Source of the DNA: Lucifuga dentata
Lineage: Eukaryota; Chordata; Actinopteri; Ophidiiformes; Bythitidae
NCBI GenBank assembly: GCA_014773175.1
Contig: VXCM01006074.1
Location: 1 to 64,000, forward strand
Direction: 5' to 3'
DNA length: 64,000 nt
Shown: piece by piece, positions 40,271-54,860 of the stretch
How the letters are laid out: the number at the start of each line of letters is the position of its first letter
How positions within the stretch are numbered: the first letter of the stretch is position 1
The notes under the pieces: generated by a model
What the model saw: only the letters and a program-made list of their open reading frames with translations
Told to the model about the DNA's origin: nothing
Database searches by the model: none
Made by a program: the position numbers and the translations under genes

Positions 40271-43158
40271 CGAGTTATTGAAAAAGCCTTGCAATGCACA
40301 CTTACAACCCTCTTCGTAGCTTAAAACACGACATGTAGAAAACTAGAAAACTTTTTTGGCTAAAACCAGTGAACTCCACCTCATTATGGCCAAGGTCAGA
40401 TGGAGATGCTCATTTTGAAAAGTCACCACAACAATCTGTCACTCTCAGAACCTTATTATATGAACAGGAACTGGCATTCTAATGGCCGTGTAGATTTGCA
40501 GACATGGCCGGTCAGCACACAGCATTGCAGCCTACCATCAGGGATAAAGCAACAAACAAAGCTGACCCGCTGACCCCTGCAGCACAAACAATAACAAGGA
40601 AATGGGTCTGCAGGAAGATGGAGGCGTGGGAAAGAAACAGCCTGAGAGGAGAGTTAGTGCATGCAGGCCTAATGATGAAGGATGCACAGGGAGGAAGCAG
40701 ACTGTGCCTGATTGCTCAGTGGTACAAAACAGCCTGTTAACAATGAGCCAGGGAACAATAGAGGAAGTGGCTCCAAGGACCTTCTAATATCATAAACACT
40801 GAAAAGACTTATTAGAATGGGGTTATAATAAATGACCTAAAGGACTGTCCACATTCATTCTTCCTGACTAGAGCAGCAGCACACACTGAACTGGATTGTG
40901 AACCAGCTGGCACATCAGTAGCAGCTGCTCATTTAAGTTTTGGTTTATTTAACTTTATTTAAAGATGTAAAATATACAGACAGACTGACGGTAAATCTGC
41001 TGTGCAGGAGAGAGATTTATATCCTTATTCATCAGTAATATCATGTAACTGACAATTGACACAAAACCTAGATAAATGATGTGCTTTGCTTTTATTGAAA
41101 CATTTTATTTTTTTATTTTATTATTATTATTTATTTCCTTTCAGCTCACTGTGAAAAACATATACAACATGGTTCCACATTATCATGGGTCAAAGCAGCT
41201 AGAATGATGTAAAGTGGACAACAGAAAGCATTTGAGGACGTATGTTCAGCACAACATCTGCTTGTAATCAGCACCACCACTGTGTAAAGTCATTCAGTAA
41301 CATGCTTTATTACAGTACTAAAGTATTGTAACATTGGGAATGCCATTTTGAGTTACTATCATATTAGATAGTTTGAATTCAGTGATAACAGAGTAGAATA
41401 CAGTTAGGGCATGGCTCATGTGTTCTGAGATAAAACGTTCTCTTTTACAGCTTTTACATAGCGTCAGTGAAACTCTCATCAGGTAAGTCTCTGCTCTGTC
41501 AGTCAGTGAGTTATCCAATCACAAGGGTTTGTTACCAAGGAGAGATCTGGGGTTAGCAGGTTGTAGTGTAAATACGCTTTTGATTGGGACAAGAGTAAAG
41601 ACAATAAAGATTATACCTAGGATAATAAATAAGATAGTCTTTACAATTTATCCAATTGGAAAGGAGGTGAGTTCTCGGCTATTTGAGTCAAGCTCCACAC
41701 AAATAAACCAAATAAACATTCCTCTGAGTTTTATAATTTATTAAACACCCACACCAAATGATAGAAAATGACTGGGGTCAGAGCAAGAATGTGAATTTTA
41801 TGGCATTAAGCTGACTCAGATTAGAAGGAATGATTGGCAGTGGAGGAGAAAGGAGTCACTTTTGCTATGCTATCGGTGATGCTAAACAGTTAGCCGTAAC
41901 AGAGACAAGATTAGCAAGGAAGAAAATTTAAATCAGAAATGGTTTCTCTCTAATTACCCCATGACAGAGGCAGGTACTTATGGTGAAGCCAGTGCTGGAT
42001 TCAGTCGATCCGGCAAGAGACTTGGCTAGAACCTGGCTGATAACCGGACTGGACCAAGTGGGCGGACAACCTTCTGTCGGCTGATTCCTCAGGGAGAGGG
42101 CATCGATTGTTGCAATTGATCAGTGAATTCTTCAGATTTCTCAGAAACCATGATGCTTGTTCACTCTTCTGGCTCACAGGGACAACATGGATGCGATCGG
42201 TCAATGAAGGCATCTTTGTGGTGGTCTCAGGTAGCGGGATTGGCTGTCTTCTGTGTTGGAAGTGAATGAGATTCACCTGAACTGACTTGTACTTTAACTG
42301 ACTTGCTATGTAAAGTGGCAAAGTTCTTGCGATGAGGGAACAAAAACACAAGTTTATTCCTTTTATTGTCCAACAGTTTTTTGCACTCCATCTAGAACGT
42401 ATATTTTATGTGGACATTTAGAACACTGTTTTACTGCACAGAATGTGTTTCAGGTTCTCACATTTTAAAATCTATTCAATGTGACTTATATTTGTGACTT
42501 ATAATGTGACTTATATTCTGAAGTGACTGTTGGTGTCATAAGAATGGAAGACTCCCATTGTTCTCTCCTGTCAAAGACTCAGGTGGATGATGCTACTGGA
42601 CCAAACAACAGTGTGAACAGGTACTTTAATGTTTAACACCTGGCCTTTACTTCTACAGTCTCTCTGAGCCAATTTCTTAGTTCCACCACAAAGTCAACAA
42701 GGTTAAGAGAGTAATCCAGTATGAATGAGTCTTGCCTAACGGTGTTTTGTGCTCCAGCTAGAAGGTATATTGTATGGGGACATTTAGAATACTGTTTTGT
42801 TACTAAGAAGGTGTTTCTTCTTGGCAGAATATCACTCTGTTTTGGGACCATCACAACATCCCCACAGCACATATTAAGTCAGAGTGTGTGCGTCTGATAA
42901 TTTTTTGTTTGAACTCGAAACCGGGGGCGATGTGTCCCCACAAGGGACATAAACATGGTGTGTGAAATGTCCCCACAAAGCCTGTTTAATTCAAGATGTG
43001 TGACCACAAACAAAACTTGACTGGGCAGTAAAAAAATTAATTTATTTTAAATCTGATGATTGCTTATTCTAGTGTGTTTGGAATTATTTCTGTTTTTATT
43101 TTGTCACAGCTGTTTGTGTTCTCAATGTTTTGTGTACTATTGCCTTTATTTACAGATT
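37947..43158. other. Mostly unassigned DNA with microsatellites
   Basis: Near 38250-38300 is a LINE-like 3' tail (GAAAGGCGCCTTTAAATAAAATG). A poly-A run lies at 39668-39696. (TCTA)n (40085-40195, duplicated across an N at 40128) and (TG)n/(TA)n (about 40226-40270) follow. A 60-bp block at about 42374-42432 recurs imperfectly at about 42743-42802 (ACTCCATCTAGAACG versus GCTCCAGCTAGAAGG). The minus-strand 116-codon frame at 42001-42351 has no motif I recognise. Confidence 0.4.
40061..40195. repeat. 67-bp duplication flanking single N (40128), in (TCTA)n
   Basis: 40061-40127 repeats at 40129-40195. The apparent doubling of the microsatellite is probably an assembly overlap. Confidence 0.9.
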
Positions 43159-45461
43159 ATGACAGAATTCCAAAATGAACACAAGATTGTTATACCAAGA
43201 CTGCAGAGGACGAAAAGCATCCTTGTAAGTTTTCAATTAAATGGCTATCAAATTCTGTATTTTCTGAGCCATGATTGTAGGTATGTTTAAGGTGTGTATA
43301 TACAGTATATATAAATTGATTTTTCCTTTTTAGATGAAAGATCTATCTATCTTCAGTTCTTGAAGATTCTGAGGATATTTACGATTCAACATCAGCAAGT
43401 GATGATGAATATGTTCTAGATAGCAGATGTGAAAGTGAACACAGTGAAGCTAGCCTTCAAATTTCAAAACATTTGTCTGTGGATGATTGGCTCAATGTTT
43501 CTGCAGTCATTGATTCCACAACATCAGATAACATGGACTTCGACCAGATCAGCTTTACAACTTCAGATAATTTGAATTTTGGTAAGAGCAGTATTACCTC
43601 TGAAGTCATAGGAGCCATAGTCAAATTACCAGCTCAAATCAGGACATGATTGACAGCATTTTTGTTAGTTCTTCCCAAAAAAGAAGTGGAAATAGAGTGT
43701 AGGACAAGAGACATTATTGCTTATACTGTTGTTAACCTTATGCAAAAATGGCAAGGCATCTGGAATCTGCACATAAAGATAAAGTTGATGTGAGCAAAAT
43801 CATAAGCTTTCTGAAAGGCTGCAAAGAAAGAAAACAAAATCTAGATTATATTTGCAACAGAGGCAACTATGCTCACAATGCTACTGTTATGGAGTCAGGG
43901 AAGGGGGAACTTGTGCCATTCAAATGACCACCCAAGGCAGCAAAAGGAAATGACTTCATGCATTGTGCATACTGCCAAGGACTATTTATGAGAAAAGTTT
44001 CTGTGGCGACACTTGCAGAGTTGTACACTTAAGCCTGGATCAGTTGCCCCAAAACCAGGAAAGAACCGTGTTCAGTCCATGTGTACATTCACAGGCCCTG
44101 CCTTCACACGTGAGCAGACAACTGTGGGAAGTTATTAGTGCTATGAATCCTGACCCCATAACAGATGTAATCAAACATGACCATGTCATTATTGAAGTTG
44201 GACAACACCTGCTAAACAAAGGTGGTACATCAGCCAAAAGTAAAAGGTGTGTGCGAGAGAAGATGTGAGAAATGGAACGACTTCTTCTAATGGCCAGGAA
44301 AGTTACCACCTTGAAAACGATGGAAGATTTCATAAATCCAAGGAACTACATTGAGACAGTGAAAGCTGTCAGATTTACATGTGGCTATGACAATGAAGCA
44401 AACAAATTCTTAGTCCCATCACTGGCAAATAAACTTGGGAACACCTTGGTTAAAGTCAGCGAACTCTTAAAAGCTCAGAGTTTGATATCAGATAACAAAG
44501 AGCTAGTGAGGAATGCCACTGAGTTCCTAGACATCCATAAGGAAAAGTGGAATGAGATGATCTCTGCAAGAGCACTACAAAACATTGTGGAAGCAAAGTG
44601 GAATGTACCCACTCTCATGCCCTTTACTGAAGATGTCCAAAAACTGCAACTTTCTCAATCAAGTGAAAGATGAGTACACCAATGAATTATCTGAAAATCC
44701 TTCAGCTGCATCCTGGACAAACCTTGCAAAGGTTTGTCTGATTGTCTGACACAGATCATTCTGTTTAACCAATGCAGGGAAGGAAAAGTGGCAAGCATGT
44801 CCTTACAAGTATTCTTATCAGGGGACACTTCCAATCCTCATGAAGATGTAGACTGGACACTCTCTGAAGTGGGGGAAAAAAAAACCCTGCAGACACTTCT
44901 CAAGAATTGTCAGGAGGGGAAAACGAGGTCGACCAGTTCCAATTCTGTTGACTCCACAGATGTTGTGTGTATTAGAAATGCTTGCTAAGCAGAGAGAAGA
45001 TACTGGAGTTCTGAAAGACAATGAATATATGTTTGCAAGACCAGGAGCTCTGACACATTTCTGAGGTTCAGACTGCATTCGCAGCTTTGGAAAGGCTTGT
45101 GGTGCAAAGTGTCCAGAGGCACTGACATCTACTAAACTAAGAAAGCATGCTGCAACACTTTCAACAGTACTAAATATGACAGACACAGAGATGGATCAGC
45201 TGGCAAATTTTCTTGGCCATGACATGAGAATCCATCGGGAGTTCTGTCAACTACCTGAGAAAACCCTTCAACTCACCAAGATCAGTAAAGTTGTAATGGC
45301 ACTCGAGCAAGGAAGATTAGCTGAGTTCCATGGCAAGAACTTAAATGAAATCAGTGTAGATCCCGATGGTATGTCTTTTGATTTGCATTTTCCTTTCTTT
45401 ACCTTTCTTTTTTCTTTTATTTTTTTTTACTTTTTTTAAATTAAATTACATTTATGAATGG

Positions 45462-46020
45462 TTTTTGGTGTGTTTTCTACAGAAAAAGTTATGCACAGTG
45501 ACATAGAAGACAAGAATGGAGAAGAGGGAAGCCTTTCCTCTTCAATTGATGGTATGTCAGTAAGTCAATGTCAAATGTAACAGGTGTTTTAGTTTATTAT
45601 TCACCAATCATTGAGTAAATTTTGTGTAACTTTTTTGTGTTTTTTCCATTGTCTTGAAGATGAATGAATTTGTAGGTTATACACATTCCATCCAATATTC
45701 TTGTACATACTTTCTATACCTAGCACATTATCTCTTACAATTTCTTTTTGTTAAATTATTTTCAGGACCTGTTTTTGGTGTGTCTTCTACAGAAGTTCTG
45801 CACAGTGATGTAGAAGACAAGAATGGAGAAGAGGGAAACTTTTCCTCTACAGTTGATGGTATGTGGTGTCAGTAAATTAATGTCAAAAGTAACAGCTATT
45901 TTAGTTTATTATTCACCAATCATTGAACAACTGTGTTGTGTAACTTTTGTGTTATTTTTTTCCATTGTCTTGAAGATGAATGAATGTGTAGGTTATACAC
46001 ATTCCATCCAATATTCTTGG
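45462..46020 (+). repeat. Intragenic tandem duplication containing one exon (period 310)
   Basis: The acceptor block TTTTTGGTGTGTYTTCTACAG occurs at 45462-45482 and again at 45772-45792. The phase-1 exon that follows (69 and 66 bp) encodes EKVMHSDIEDKNGEEG and EVLHSDVEDKNGEEG. The following intron sequence, including TTTATTATTCACCAATCATTG and GGTTATACACATTCCATCC, is also repeated. Copies differ by scattered substitutions and small indels, so the duplication is not recent. The exon is symmetrical, so adding it kept the frame. Confidence 0.9.
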
Positions 46021-46724
46021 AAGCACATTAATGTAATGTACAAGTCATGACATGCACTTAGTATCTTATTGTAAGATAGTACTTTGTTGCTTTTGTAAAA
46101 GCCAAAAAATGCAAAAAATATTTTTGATTTTACCTCCTTTGGTTCAAAGGACAACGCACAAACATAATCCCAGCAAAGTAATCATCACTGAGGAAGCATT
46201 TGATTATTTAGAGTTACACTCTGCAATATATCCATGATGACTGGCTTGCTGTGTGAGACTCCTGCACTTTGAAAATCTCATTTATCATTGACATTTGATG
46301 TTTATTCTAAAACACTGAATGAACATCAAATAATCATCACTGATCAAATTAATAACTTTCCATATTTACTTGCAAATGATGAACACAGTTATACACCTAC
46401 ACACTTTAATAGTTTATTGCTCTTCTTTTATAAATATAAACAATGACACTGATAGGGTATAGTCAACATTTTTTTTCATACACATGGTGGACTTTTAAAA
46501 TGTTACATTTTGTTTTTTTTTTCCATAGAACAATCAGCAGAGGAGACACTTCCACCTCCTGAGAGAAATAAAATGCCACCACCCACCACCTAAGAAATGC
46601 AAACCATCATCAGCATACAATGAGGTATCCTCAGAAGTCAATGCTGTGAGGTCTTCCACCAAAGGTGAGCTCTATATACATTATCCATTTTTTGTATGCC
46701 AAACAGATAAAACTGGAAAAGGCA

Positions 46725-46815
46725 CTACCTACCTACTTACCTACCTACCTACCTACCAACATAACTACCTACATACCTACGTACCTACATAACTACCTAC
46801 CTACTACCTATCCAC
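46725..46815. repeat. (CTAC)n microsatellite in an intron of the Crypton-like gene
   Basis: An interrupted CTAC repeat lies inside the last intron (46665-47080). Confidence 0.9.
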
Positions 46816-47300
46816 CCAGCCACAGTGTGGTATCATAGTAAGGTTTCTAACTTGTAACCCATATGTAATAAATGTCATCCAGAAGTTGATGTGAAAATTG
46901 TATTATTATTGTTATATTGTTTTTTTCACCATACATTGTTTTGGTGGGTAGCCTGTTGGGTATCCAGTCTGGGGCAGGACTCCACTGTAGACAGCATGTA
47001 CCTGTATATTGGCACATGATTTAGAACTTGCTTATCTTTTTATTTACACAGTTGTTTTTCCTTCCTCCTTTTTGGTAAAGCTGCCCAGAAGAAGAAAACA
47101 CCCTGGCAGCAGACAGAGGTGCAGGTGGTGGAGAGGCACATGAATCGCTTCATCACTTCTGGTGTTGTACCAACAAAGAGAGACTGTGAGAAATGCTTAA
47201 AGGCTGAGCCAGTAGCTCTCACAAACCGGAACTGGCAGAATTTTTGAAATTCTATCTTTATAACTGTACGGCCTACAAAAGGAAAATGCAGCGTAAATAG

Positions 47301-48309: not shown

Positions 48310-48673
48310 GGTCTGGTTCCGGGTTTCTGTGTTCCATCCCTCGTCTGGGTGCTGTGTCTTGCCCTCACCAGCTTGGTGGACCACCAGCATGAGCATCAGC
48401 TTGCTCATGCATGGGGCATGGGTGTATTGGCCCTTGACCCACTGTGGCCCACTGTCCACCCCTGGCAGTTGATCCCCATGGCTTTGTGGCCATGGTGTGG
48501 GCTGTCTCCTGGGCCTGGGGTCACCTCTTTTGTCTTAGCAACATTAATTTCCAACTCAGTGATTTGGCACCAAGTCAGAAGAGCCTTGGTGTGGGTCAGG
48601 TATTCGGCTTCATCTAAGGGACCATACTTCTGTAAGAGGCCGACTAATGCCATGTCATCAACGTACTTACAGA
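48310..48673 (-). pseudogene. LINE reverse transcriptase relic, C-terminal half
   Basis: On the minus strand this continues the RT whose N-terminal half lies at 51489-51897, beyond the nested hAT. It reads KYVDDMALVGLL, containing the Y-x-D-D catalytic box, then ALLTWCQITELEINVAKTKE, the segment that usually follows it in Jockey/CR1/Rex1-type LINEs. The frame remains open to about 48405. The copy is cut at the low-coordinate side by a G-rich/(TG)n junction with an N at 48306, so the RT thumb and 3' end are missing. Confidence 0.75.
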
Positions 48674-48681
48674 GACTAAAG
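48674..48681. repeat. hAT target-site duplication, left (GACTAAAG)
   Basis: Matches GATTAAAG at 51489-51496 in seven of eight positions. Confidence 0.8.
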
Positions 48682-48914
48682 CAGAGGTGCCCAAACGTTT
48701 TCCTATGAAGGGCCAAAAATTAAACTTGATGGAGGGCCGTGGGCCAAAAGTAAACATTGCACTACATTAAATTTATAACATTAAATATAATATTAAAACA
48801 TAAAGGTTGCCCCAGCTCCCCTCATTTATGACTTCATAATATTAAAAACATTACTCTGTAATCTGCTCAACTTATTCCATTTTATTTTTCAAGGTATATC
48901 TTATGTAACATCAA

Positions 48915-49655: not shown

Positions 49656-50741
49656 TAAGGAGGAAATTAATCCATGATAATTTCTGAGAGCTTTAAAAAA
49701 AATAAAAAGTTTGATTTAAAAAAACAACCAAAAGATGACTGGATATACACTGGATATAACTGCAAACTAAATATAATTGCTACTACTAATAATAATAACT
49801 GCACATCAGTATAATATTGTGACTATTTGAATGTTATAATTATGAATGTTACCTGCTGAGAGATGTCTTCTGAGTACCAGCAGTTTCTGTTTGAAGGCTC
49901 TGACATGATCATATAGCTGAGTGATGATCTGCTCCTTCCCTCAGAGCTGAACATTCAAAACATTCAGCAGCTGATGTCCACAAGAAAAGTCAGGTCAGAA
50001 AGCCATTTCTTATCCGTGGGCACTTGAATGTTACCATCCTTGCTGGCCTGAAATCCCTGATCTCATCACACAGATCAAAAAATCTCCTCAGAACTTTTCC
50101 TCGGTTCAGCCATCTAATGTCCTGGTGGTACAACACATCACCATATTATGCATCCATCTCATCCAGCAGGACCTTGAACTGGTGATGAGACAGCACCTTG
50201 GAGCGGATTTTATTGACAATGCTGACAACTTTGCACATCACATCTACGAGTCCGATGGATTTGGCAACCAGCTGTTCTTGGTGTAAAATGCAGTGGTACT
50301 TTACCACTTCCCCCCCACATTCACTGACCTTCCCAGACACCAACATAGCAAGGCCAGATTTCCTCCCCACCATCGCTGGGGCTCCATCAGTTGTAAAGCC
50401 AGCCATAGTCTCCCACTTTCATTCATTCTTTTTCAGCACACTCTCCATAGCCAAAAAAAATTATATCTTCTCCTTTTGTAGTACCAGAAAGTGTCTCAAC
50501 GCCAGCTAGTTCTTGTGTTATTTCAAACTTGTCATTTATTCCACGTAAAAACACCAACAGCTGTGCAGAATCGGATATATCGGTGCTCTCGTCACAAGCT
50601 ATAATAAAGGCAGAAAATCTGGTTGCTTTTTCCTTGATTTGCTCACCGATATCTTGTGCCATGTCCTCTATGCGACAGGTAATGGTATTCTGGGACAAGC
50701 TGATTTGCGAGCACGTCTGTATCTGAGAGGGGCACATGGTT

Positions 50742-50876
50742 TCTGCAGCCACAGCTAGGCACTGCTTGACAAACTCTCCAGTAGCTAAAGCTCTTCCACT
50801 TTTAGCAANTCTGCAGCCACAGCTAGGCACTGCTTGACAAACTCTCCAGTAGCTAAAGCTCTTCCACTTTTAGCAA
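50742..50876. repeat. 67-bp duplication flanking single N (50809)
   Basis: 50742-50808 repeats at 50810-50876 inside the hAT coding relic. It falsely interrupts the frame. Confidence 0.9.
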
Positions 50877-51892
50877 TTAGGGCAGAAATCTGATAGCTGG
50901 CATTCTCCTGAGCAGATGAAGGCCGCTGCAGCGGGCCCTGCTCACAGCGGAGTTTCGCTAGCAGCTCGCTAGCCTTCTGCTTTTGTGCCTCGCCACAGTA
51001 CTTTGAGAAAGCTAAAGAATGTTTAGTTTCATAATGACGGCGGACACTGTACTCCTTTAAAACAGCAACTGGCTGCTTGCAAATAAGACACACTGCCTTG
51101 TAATCAACTTCAGTAAAAAAAATAATAGTCATGCCAATCTTTTTTTTCTGTGCCACAGCCTTGATCTCTCCATCATTGCCTGTTGACTGATAGTCATGTC
51201 CTGTCTTGAAGCACGCCGTAAGTACACCTTAAAGTGCACATTTACATTTAAAAAAAAAAAAAAATCAAATTCATTATACTCTCTACATTTGAAGTAATAC
51301 TTTTTACTTATTTATTATTTATATGGTGAAAAAATAAAAATAAAATATTAAAAAAAAAAATAAAATTAAAAATGAACGTAGTCAATGGCATTATCTTTTT
51401 TTCCACTTGTCAAATATGAGGTGGCAGGCCAAATCAAAGGTCATGAAGGGACAACTTTGGCCTGCAGGCCCCAGTTAGGGTGGTGCTGGATTAAAGCATT
51501 GCTCAGTCATAGAATCATTAGTGAAAAGGGAGGACAGCACAAGGGAAAGGACACGACCTTGTAGACAGCCTGTGCTCACAGTGAGCAGGTCTGACATTGT
51601 CCCATTAATACAAACTCTGTGGGCAAAAGGAAAGGAAATCTTTAACGTCAGTCCACTATCTCCAAGATTAGTAAGCCTGTTTAGAAGAATATGTGTCTTC
51701 ATTGGATTAAAAGCAGAATTGAAGTTAACAAATAAAACCCTGGCATATCCTTTAGGTTGCATAAGATTTCTAGTGACTGTGTTGAGCAGAGCCAGAACAG
51801 CATCATCTGTGCCTCTGCTTCTCCTATATGCAAACTGAAATGGGTCTAACTGACTAGCCATAGATGTAGTTAAGTAATAAGTGATGACTCTG

Positions 51893-52202
51893 TCCACGGT
51901 TTTACACAGTATGGAAGTAACAGTAATTGGTTGAAAGTCATTTAGTGTGCTTGCACCAGTCTTTTAGCCACAGGCCTAAAAATTGAAAGTTTCCATGATT
52001 TAGGCACTGCGCAGATATTCAAATGAAGTTGGAACAACCTAGTAAAANTCCACGGTTTTACACAGTATGGAAGTAACAGTAATTGGTTGAAAGTCATTTA
52101 GTGTGCTTGCACCAATCTTTTAGCCACAGGCCTAAAAATTGAAAGTTTCCATGATTTAGGCACTGCACAGATATTCAAATGAAGTTGGAACAACCTAGTA
52201 AA
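51893..52202. repeat. ~154-bp near-identical duplication flanking N (52047)
   Basis: 51893-52046 repeats at 52048-52202 with at least two differences. Possibly two haplotype contigs placed in series. Confidence 0.85.
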
Positions 52203-54290: not shown

Positions 54291-54860
54291 TCACAAATTT
54301 GGGGTTGCATGATTTTTGAGCCATGTCTCTGTAAAACATGAGATTACTCTGCCTAAATTCTCTAATACTATGTCTAAAGTGTTGATTTGTTGCTTCCAGG
54401 AAATTTCTTGCATTTCAGCCACATGTACAGCTTTTCCCAATGTTGTCATGAATCTTTCAACTGTACCATGAGCTTGCAGCCATAGTGGGGTGATGTGGTG
54501 AAAACCTAGATAGGCAGCAAACTGGGAGAATTGGTCACCGTTGAATGGAGGACCATTATCCGATTTCATGATCCTGGGAATCCCGAACATGAAAAAGATC
54601 TTGTCCATGACTGGAATAACAGTGTTGGCTTTTTCTGCTGCTAGGGTGTCATAAATGTCATGCACTCATTCCCCTGCTAAGTGCAATAACAATGCTTTGA
54701 ACCTAGCATCTCCTGTTAGATTCATTGCTGTTGTATAATTGTCAAATCTTTGTACCCACTTATTCCACCGAGGTCTGACAGAGCTGGGGTCTGTTTCTGT
54801 GTCAAATTCTGTGTGGTGGAAGTGCAGTGTTGCTGGCCAAGCTTGCTATAGGGATCCGAC
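54291..54860 (-). pseudogene. Ty3/gypsy Gag fragment fused to integrase core
   Basis: On the minus strand a Gag piece (RWNKWVQRFDNYTTAMNL, then ARFKALLLHL, a TGA, and HDIYDTLAA) runs straight into an integrase core (ANTVIPVMDKIFFMFGIPR, SDNGPPFNGDQFSQF, HITPLW, GTVERFM, LGKAV) without protease, RT or RNase H. In the integrase DDE triad the second Asp (SDNGPPF) and the Glu (GTVERFM) are present. The first Asp would have been in the deleted part. The junction lies within the 124-codon frame 54665-54291, so the deletion is in frame. After about 54340 the frame shifts away from the family sequence. This is a dead, internally deleted copy. Confidence 0.75.

What the first reader, a model, noticed from the sequence alone, without database searches (positions are those of the whole stretch)
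43159..47300. Crypton-like tyrosine recombinase gene with intact introns but a Cys at the catalytic Tyr position
Directly visible: a multi-exon plus-strand relic with GT-AG introns, two Cys/His motifs, then YR-type boxes (TKLRKHAAT with Arg at 45140-45142; FLGHD with His at 45218-45220) and HREFC, where the nucleophilic Tyr would be. Established: YRs need R...R...H...Y, and Cryptons and their domesticated relatives use this fold. Inference: it belongs to a large fish family of uncharacterised YR proteins. It is the best candidate here for an under-described system, although this copy is dead.
Basis: partly seen in the sequence, partly recalled or inferred. Interest (0 to 1): 0.75.

Follow-up and report, generated by a model that had tools for sequence, protein, structure and literature searches.

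The report
Dead fish transposon with recombinase gene
This stretch is a decayed copy of what looks like a jumping gene of fishes that cuts and rejoins DNA with a tyrosine recombinase; most intact relatives keep the catalytic tyrosine lost here, and about half also carry a histone-methyltransferase-like domain, an unusual pairing for a transposon.

Summary
Observation confirmed. It is dead: at least six frame changes and five in-frame stops in the main exon. A linker exon lies upstream (42547-42612).

It belongs to a large family, mostly of fishes, plus two frogs. Pfam shows no recombinase, but profile comparison with shuffle controls and two predicted structures show a real tyrosine-recombinase domain. 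Of 213 family proteins retrieved (isoforms included), 183 keep Tyr; 103 carry a KMT5A/SETD8-like SET pattern, absent from this window. A shad has five 97.9-99.8% identical copies on five contigs, so the family was probably mobile recently.

The Cys here is best read as decay. Elsewhere Tyr loss looks meaningful: in a 13-row cyprinid clade 0 of 12 testable proteins keep Tyr, the catalytic domain is relaxed, and the other domains are not, which suggests a young domestication.

Crypton-like in mechanism (inferred); Crypton membership untested. No SET-bearing YR transposon turned up in the papers searched; Repbase was not searchable.

The parts
42547..42612 (+). linker exon, decayed copy of the tandem '...LLSKTQMDDATGP...' unit that lies between SET domain and zinc fingers in intact relatives
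   Evidence: tblastn with the frog relative P0035, 73% identity over 22 aa, and with P0005; neighbouring 366-bp-spaced repeat 42366-42451 / 42732-42817
43159..43224 (+). exon ending ...PRLQRTKSIL; donor GT at 43225
   Evidence: tblastn P0005 435-459; sequence
43334..45368 (+). main exon: acidic region, two zinc fingers, core-binding domain, YR catalytic domain; six frame changes, five in-frame stops
43718..43774 (+). zinc-finger motif 1 (C-x2-C-x9-H-x4-H), one in-frame stop inside
   Evidence: Cys/His kept in 205-208 of 213 relatives
43964..44027 (+). zinc-finger motif 2 (C-x2-C...H-x3-C), split by a frame change
   Evidence: kept in 211-212 of 213 relatives
44776..44778 (+). catalytic Arg-I codon (aligned to R470 of P0012)
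   Evidence: R in 207 of 213
44921..44923 (+). beta-hairpin catalytic-type Lys codon (aligned to K517)
   Evidence: K in 201 of 213; family profile aligned to the XerD hairpin
45140..45142 (+). catalytic Arg-II codon in TKLRKHAAT (aligned to R590)
   Evidence: R in 202 of 213; family profile aligned to the XerD HxxR Arg
45218..45220 (+). catalytic His codon in FLGHD (aligned to H616)
   Evidence: H in 204 of 213
45245..45247 (+). Cys codon TGT at the nucleophile position (Y625 of P0012), 9 residues after the His
   Evidence: spacing of 9 also in 70 of 76 recombinases compared; Tyr in 183 of 213 relatives
45369..45482 (+). GT-AG intron after DPD; 21 of 35 unnamed contig proteins appear to run into an intron at the same place
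45483..45551 (+). small exon EKVMHSDIEDKNGEEGSLSSSID
45793..45858 (+). tandem duplicate of the preceding exon (90% alike)
   Evidence: family D14
46529..46664 (+). exon of the proline-rich linker before the C-terminal domain; one frame change
   Evidence: tblastn P0012/P0035
47081..47300 (+). last exon: C-terminal helical (perhaps homeodomain-like) domain, stop TAG 47298-47300, one frame change

Best explanation
The region is a dead copy, lacking the SET part, of an intron-containing DNA transposon of fishes whose intact protein is SET domain (KMT5A-like, in about half of the proteins retrieved) - repeat linker - two zinc fingers - tyrosine recombinase - C-terminal helical domain. Shown: the homology, the YR domain, the conserved R-K-R-H-Y set in intact relatives, the decay of this copy, and near-identical intact copies on different contigs of other fishes. 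Inferred: that these copies moved as a transposon; that the zinc fingers and C-terminal domain bind the element's ends; that the YR excises the element, probably as a circle, through a phosphotyrosine intermediate and joins it to a new site, as proposed for Cryptons; that the SET domain modifies chromatin at donor or target, or ties movement to the cell cycle. In this copy the nucleophile is Cys and the frame is broken, so it can do none of this; the Cys most likely arose in or shortly before decay.
Confidence: 0.85

Rival explanations
1. The family is a host gene family that grows by segmental duplication; the relic is a pseudogene of a host DNA-binding protein that only inherited a YR fold.
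For: Multi-exon genes with many isoforms; one lineage (cyprinid clade, 13 rows, SH-aLRT 99) looks vertically inherited and recombinase-dead. No element ends were seen.
Against: Near-identical intact copies on five contigs of one fish and on different contigs of three others; in six Tyr-bearing cypriniform rows the catalytic domain is the best-conserved domain, 0.926 mean identity, though zinc fingers follow closely at 0.917.
Confidence: 0.12
2. The Cys is a functional change: the window copy comes from a recombinase-dead, domesticated lineage like that of cyprinids, and died later.
For: Cys stands in 8 of 12 testable rows of the cyprinid clade, and the AU test does not exclude the relic from that clade (p 0.107, lnL 27.1 lower). 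Codons for Arg-I, Lys, Arg-II and His remain in the relic, as those residues do in 11 of the 12.
Against: Both trees put the relic outside that clade, though at different places; it has stops and frame changes throughout, so a single A-to-G step needs no special cause.
Confidence: 0.08
3. A YR retrotransposon (DIRS/Ngaro type) whose reverse transcriptase part is lost.
For: Such elements make up 2.1% of the zebrafish genome (PMC9341512, passages seen) and use a YR.
Against: No RT domain is among the Pfam domains of the 120 rows listed in each; introns are kept among copies; the RT fragment at 51478-51963 lies on the other strand 4 kb away.
Confidence: 0.02

Closest known systems
Crypton DNA transposons (CryptonA/I of animals; PMC3212892, sections read)
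   Same: YR-encoding element without reverse transcriptase, multi-copy, patchy in hosts, gives rise to host genes with dead YR domains
   Different: Animal Cryptons are described as having no C-terminal domain; this family has zinc fingers, a conserved C-terminal helical domain, in about half of the proteins retrieved a SET domain, and no DUF3504 match in the Pfam scan of 8 members. Placement in a YR tree with Cryptons not tested.
DUF3504 genes (KCTD1, KIAA1958, ZMYM2/3/4, QRICH1, WOC; PMC3212892)
   Same: YR-derived proteins that lost catalytic residues and carry other DNA-binding parts, like the cyprinid Tyr-less clade found here
   Different: Those are described as very old and lacking most of the catalytic residues; 11 of 12 testable rows of the cyprinid clade keep R, K, R and H and lack only the Tyr, and most carry a SET domain
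KMT5A/SETD8 (PR-Set7)
   Same: SET domain best match, E 1.4e-27 over residues 30-145 of P0019; YDYG motif kept in most rows shown
   Different: Here fused to a recombinase; the KMT5A stretch RLINHS reads RLVND; absent from the window copy
Xer recombinases, Cre, lambda Int
   Same: Fold, hairpin Lys, R-II, LGH, 9-residue spacing to Tyr
   Different: HxxR His is Thr; no significant match to single XerD; added zinc-finger, C-terminal and SET parts
SETMAR (SET domain and mariner transposase fusion gene; listed for zebrafish in PMC2200798, passages seen)
   Same: SET domain joined to a transposon enzyme
   Different: SETMAR is a fusion with a DDE transposase (recalled); here the fused protein belongs to a multicopy family with near-identical copies on several contigs

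Membership tests
Tyrosine recombinase superfamily | YR/TopIB fold | tested here: met
   Two AlphaFold2 models of intact relatives; top VIA rows Xer, Cre, TopIB, lambda Int; hhalign E 1e-5 with shuffle control
Tyrosine recombinase superfamily | R...K...R...H...Y catalytic set in intact members | tested here: met
   207, 201, 202, 204, 183 of 213; HxxR His position is Thr in 198
Tyrosine recombinase superfamily | Tyr nucleophile in the window copy | tested here: not met
   Cys TGT 45245-45247
Crypton | YR element without RT/RNase H | tested here: met
   No RT in the relic pieces, in 8 relatives scanned or among Pfam domains of rows listed
Crypton | YR sequence clusters with Crypton YRs | not tested
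   No Crypton reference sequences were at hand
Crypton | DUF3504-type YR recognised by profile | tested here: inconclusive
   8 representatives, no DUF3504 or phage_integrase row at E<=10; HMMER filters drop weak matches
CryptonA / CryptonI | No C-terminal domain (as described in PMC3212892, section read) | tested here: not met
Crypton | No terminal inverted repeats; short direct repeats or none at ends | not testable with these tools
   No second DNA copy; own-genome search did not complete
DIRS/Ngaro retrotransposons | RT and RNase H with the YR | tested here: not met
   (rows listed)
KMT5A-like SET protein | SET domain in intact relatives | tested here: met
   KMT5A E 1.4e-27 for P0019; pattern in 103 of 213
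KMT5A-like SET protein | SET domain in the window copy | tested here: not met
   best E 0.38 in the 64-kb window
Domesticated YR gene (cyprinid clade, not the window copy) | Vertical inheritance, intact frame, loss of nucleophile, other domains kept | tested here: inconclusive
   0 of 12 testable rows with Tyr; catalytic domain relaxed relative to the others, interaction -0.074, column-bootstrap 95% interval -0.113 to -0.035, groups chosen after the tree was seen; no DNA for dN/dS, no synteny test

The most novel reading that the evidence does not exclude
A distinct superfamily of YR DNA transposons, separate from Cryptons, that captured a KMT5A-type histone methyltransferase, uses it to prepare chromatin or time its own recombination, passes between fishes and frogs, and is repeatedly turned into host chromatin regulators by losing the nucleophilic Tyr, with a young cyprinid case, apparently next to rnf214, caught in the act.
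Probability: 0.3. Interest if true: 0.8.

Novelty: new variant of a known kind. Interest (0 to 1): 0.55.

Why it matters
As of 2011 there were no studies of Crypton transposition, no known function of domesticated Crypton YRs, and only very old domestication events (PMC3212892, Discussion part 1 read); a 2022 review still calls the mechanism undetermined (PMC9406493, passage seen). A recently dispersed fish family with intact copies gives an experimental system, and the cyprinid clade would be a young domestication in which loss of the nucleophile precedes loss of the other catalytic residues. A recombinase fused to a histone-methyltransferase-like domain would make transposon control of chromatin directly testable.

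Tried and rejected
Pfam and PHROGs scans for a recombinase: no relevant match. Sequence search of the PDB with a relic piece and with alignment A1: no YR. hhalign of A1 against single XerD: right register but E 0.43, probability 0.1%, so a family profile was built instead. SET exon in the window: none. Relatives in IMG/VR: none (3 and 37 pattern stretches, none confirmed). Horizontal transfer between fish and frog: the frog Pseudophryne copy is 85.7% identical to a Serrasalmus copy, about as much as copies of different fish orders are to that same copy, but a tree with the frog outside the fishes is not rejected (p 0.443), so transfer is only suspected. A second frog, Ranitomeya, carries another subfamily. 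Idea that the Cys marks a functional lineage: see rivals. Relic placement differs between the two trees. Papers: ten searches showed no YR transposon with a SET domain in the listings. Of the 8 papers that hold both 'SET domain' and 'Crypton', 4 were opened for passages and none links the two; the other 4 were judged by title and start of abstract. Repbase and Dfam could not be searched, so a catalogued family is possible. One reference found there, a male-specific SET-domain gene setdm of gibel carp (title only; paper not held; PMC8448357 only cites it), might be a relative; not tested.

Rows dropped: the family profile left out 10 of the 40 rows of A2, all without Tyr (one further Tyr-less row, P0130, stayed); 76 of 82 candidate recombinases (80 loci, XerD, lambda Int) passed the script's filter. 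Domain-identity means used 10 Tyr-less and 6 Tyr-bearing SET-carrying cypriniform proteins, chosen after the tree. In one search, 13 of 35 contig proteins did not match the pattern used and 1 (P0096) reads on without the intron residue. Counts of 213 include isoforms and are not independent events; only the best 120 matches of each search were retrieved.

Full report
What is in the sequence. Blocks of about 60-80% identity to intact fish proteins follow one another in order across the core, while 20 shuffles of the region give a best E of 0.34. Two further catalytic-type residues are present: Arg-I at 44776-44778 and the beta-hairpin Lys at 44921-44923. The gene extends upstream to a decayed linker exon at 42547-42612. 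Splice sites agree with relatives: the codon interrupted at 45369 rejoins as DPD-EKV, as DPDEK in P0005, P0012 and P0019 and NPDEK in P0008. The copy is dead: six frame changes and five in-frame stops in the main exon, a frame change in each of two later exons, no SET exon in the window.

Tyr and Cys. In all 213 retrieved proteins aligned to P0012 (isoforms included) the counts are R-I 207, K 201, R-II 202, H 204 and Tyr 183; the others have Cys 14, Ser 4, Phe 3, a deletion 3, Asp 1, Gln 1, no coverage 4. The window's Cys is one A-to-G step in an already broken gene.

Is it mobile? Five loci of Alosa sapidissima on contigs of five different lengths encode proteins 97.9-99.8% identical over 1275-1557 residues, all with Tyr; a sixth is only 45-47% identical. 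Brienomyrus, Metynnis and Pagrus each have a pair on different contigs at 99.1-100% over 567 residues; Carassius gibelio too, but it is polyploid (recalled). In 21 of 35 unnamed contig proteins the reading frame appears to run into an intron at the same place as in the window, so copies keep the intron, which fits DNA-level movement and not retroposition. Element ends could not be found: the host genome search did not complete.

A possible young domestication in the family. A clade of 13 rows (SH-aLRT 99), two of them named rnf214 in Labeo and Puntigrus and one (Cirrhinus) with RING-type domains in the same gene model, holds no Tyr in the 12 rows that cover the site: Cys 8, Phe 2, deletion 2. 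Eleven of the 12 keep R, K, R and H; the Cirrhinus row has Glu for Lys. Of the 12, 10 carry PF00856. Sinocyclocheilus and Cyprinus have one copy in each half of the clade, as homeologues of a tetraploid would (inference). Within six Tyr-bearing cypriniform rows the catalytic domain is the best-conserved part (mean identity 0.926); within ten rows of this clade it is the least conserved (0.866), while SET, zinc fingers, core-binding and C-terminal parts are about as conserved as in the Tyr-bearing rows or more so (0.887, 0.927, 0.910, 0.910 against 0.878, 0.917, 0.913, 0.846). The domain-by-group interaction is -0.074, with a column-bootstrap 95% interval of -0.113 to -0.035; pairs share ancestry and the groups were chosen after the tree, so this is indicative. 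The zebrafish protein P0126 has lost both His and Tyr. The relic is not in this clade in either tree, but the AU test cannot exclude it (p 0.107).

Mechanism. [quoted passage not shown] Only the domain content and active-site conservation are shown; every step of movement is inferred.

What is known. Kojima and Jurka (PMC3212892; outline, abstract, sections 5, 6, 8 and Discussion part 1 read) describe animal Cryptons as lacking a C-terminal domain, report CryptonA in medaka with few remnants in other vertebrates then sequenced, and note that DUF3504 domains lack most catalytic residues and had no reported function. CryptonF elements with an added C48 peptidase are a precedent for extra domains. 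Some CryptonV families are cited as inserting in microsatellites (PMC8869645, passages). Zebrafish Cryptons make up 0.9% of that genome (PMC9341512, passages), so members of this family may already be catalogued. Searches for SET domain or KMT5A with Crypton or YR and passages of four papers showed no such element.

Verdict. The relic itself is an ordinary dead copy. The family it reveals, a recently dispersed YR element with a KMT5A-like SET domain and a Tyr-less cyprinid offshoot, is a new variant of a known kind and worth following up.

Noticed in passing
window, 29 single N positions, e.g. 40128, 48982, 49588, 50809: Single Ns are often flanked by exact direct repeats: 67 nt at 10 of 29, 62-65 nt at 4, 16-19 nt at 4, none at 11. 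This looks like an assembly-join artefact (overlap kept on both sides). None lies inside 43159-47300.
   Followed up: partly
cyprinid proteins P0062, P0121, P0056, P0059, P0069, P0075, P0105, P0088, P0091, P0089, P0001, P0002, P0129: Clade without Tyr in the 12 members that cover the site, mostly SET-bearing, some named rnf214: candidate young domesticated gene.
   Followed up: partly
P0126 (Danio rerio): Zebrafish relative has lost both catalytic His and Tyr and shows only a remnant of the SET domain, but keeps zinc fingers and the C-terminal part.
   Followed up: no
P0102, P0104, P0118 (seahorses and seadragon): Second Tyr-less group (Ser/Cys) in syngnathid fishes, on long branches.
   Followed up: no
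P0035 (Pseudophryne), P0137 (Ranitomeya): Two frogs carry different subfamilies; the Pseudophryne copy is 85.7% identical to a Serrasalmus copy; horizontal transfer suspected, not shown.
   Followed up: partly
gibel carp literature (reference lists of PMC9945428 and PMC8448357): A male-specific SET-domain gene, setdm, on extra microchromosomes of gibel carp is cited (title only seen); gibel carp carries several members of this family, so a link is worth testing.
   Followed up: no
50788-51228 (-) with 50149-50869 (-): Spin-doc type zinc finger (PF18658) and neighbouring frames that read like a hAT-related gene fragment (the hAT label is recalled).
   Followed up: no
51478-51963 (-), 54294-54665 (-) and 48408-48719 (-): Reverse-transcriptase fragment (PF00078), integrase-core fragment (PF00665, below its curated cut-off), and a frame with YVDDM that looks RT-like by eye but has no Pfam match.
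   Followed up: no
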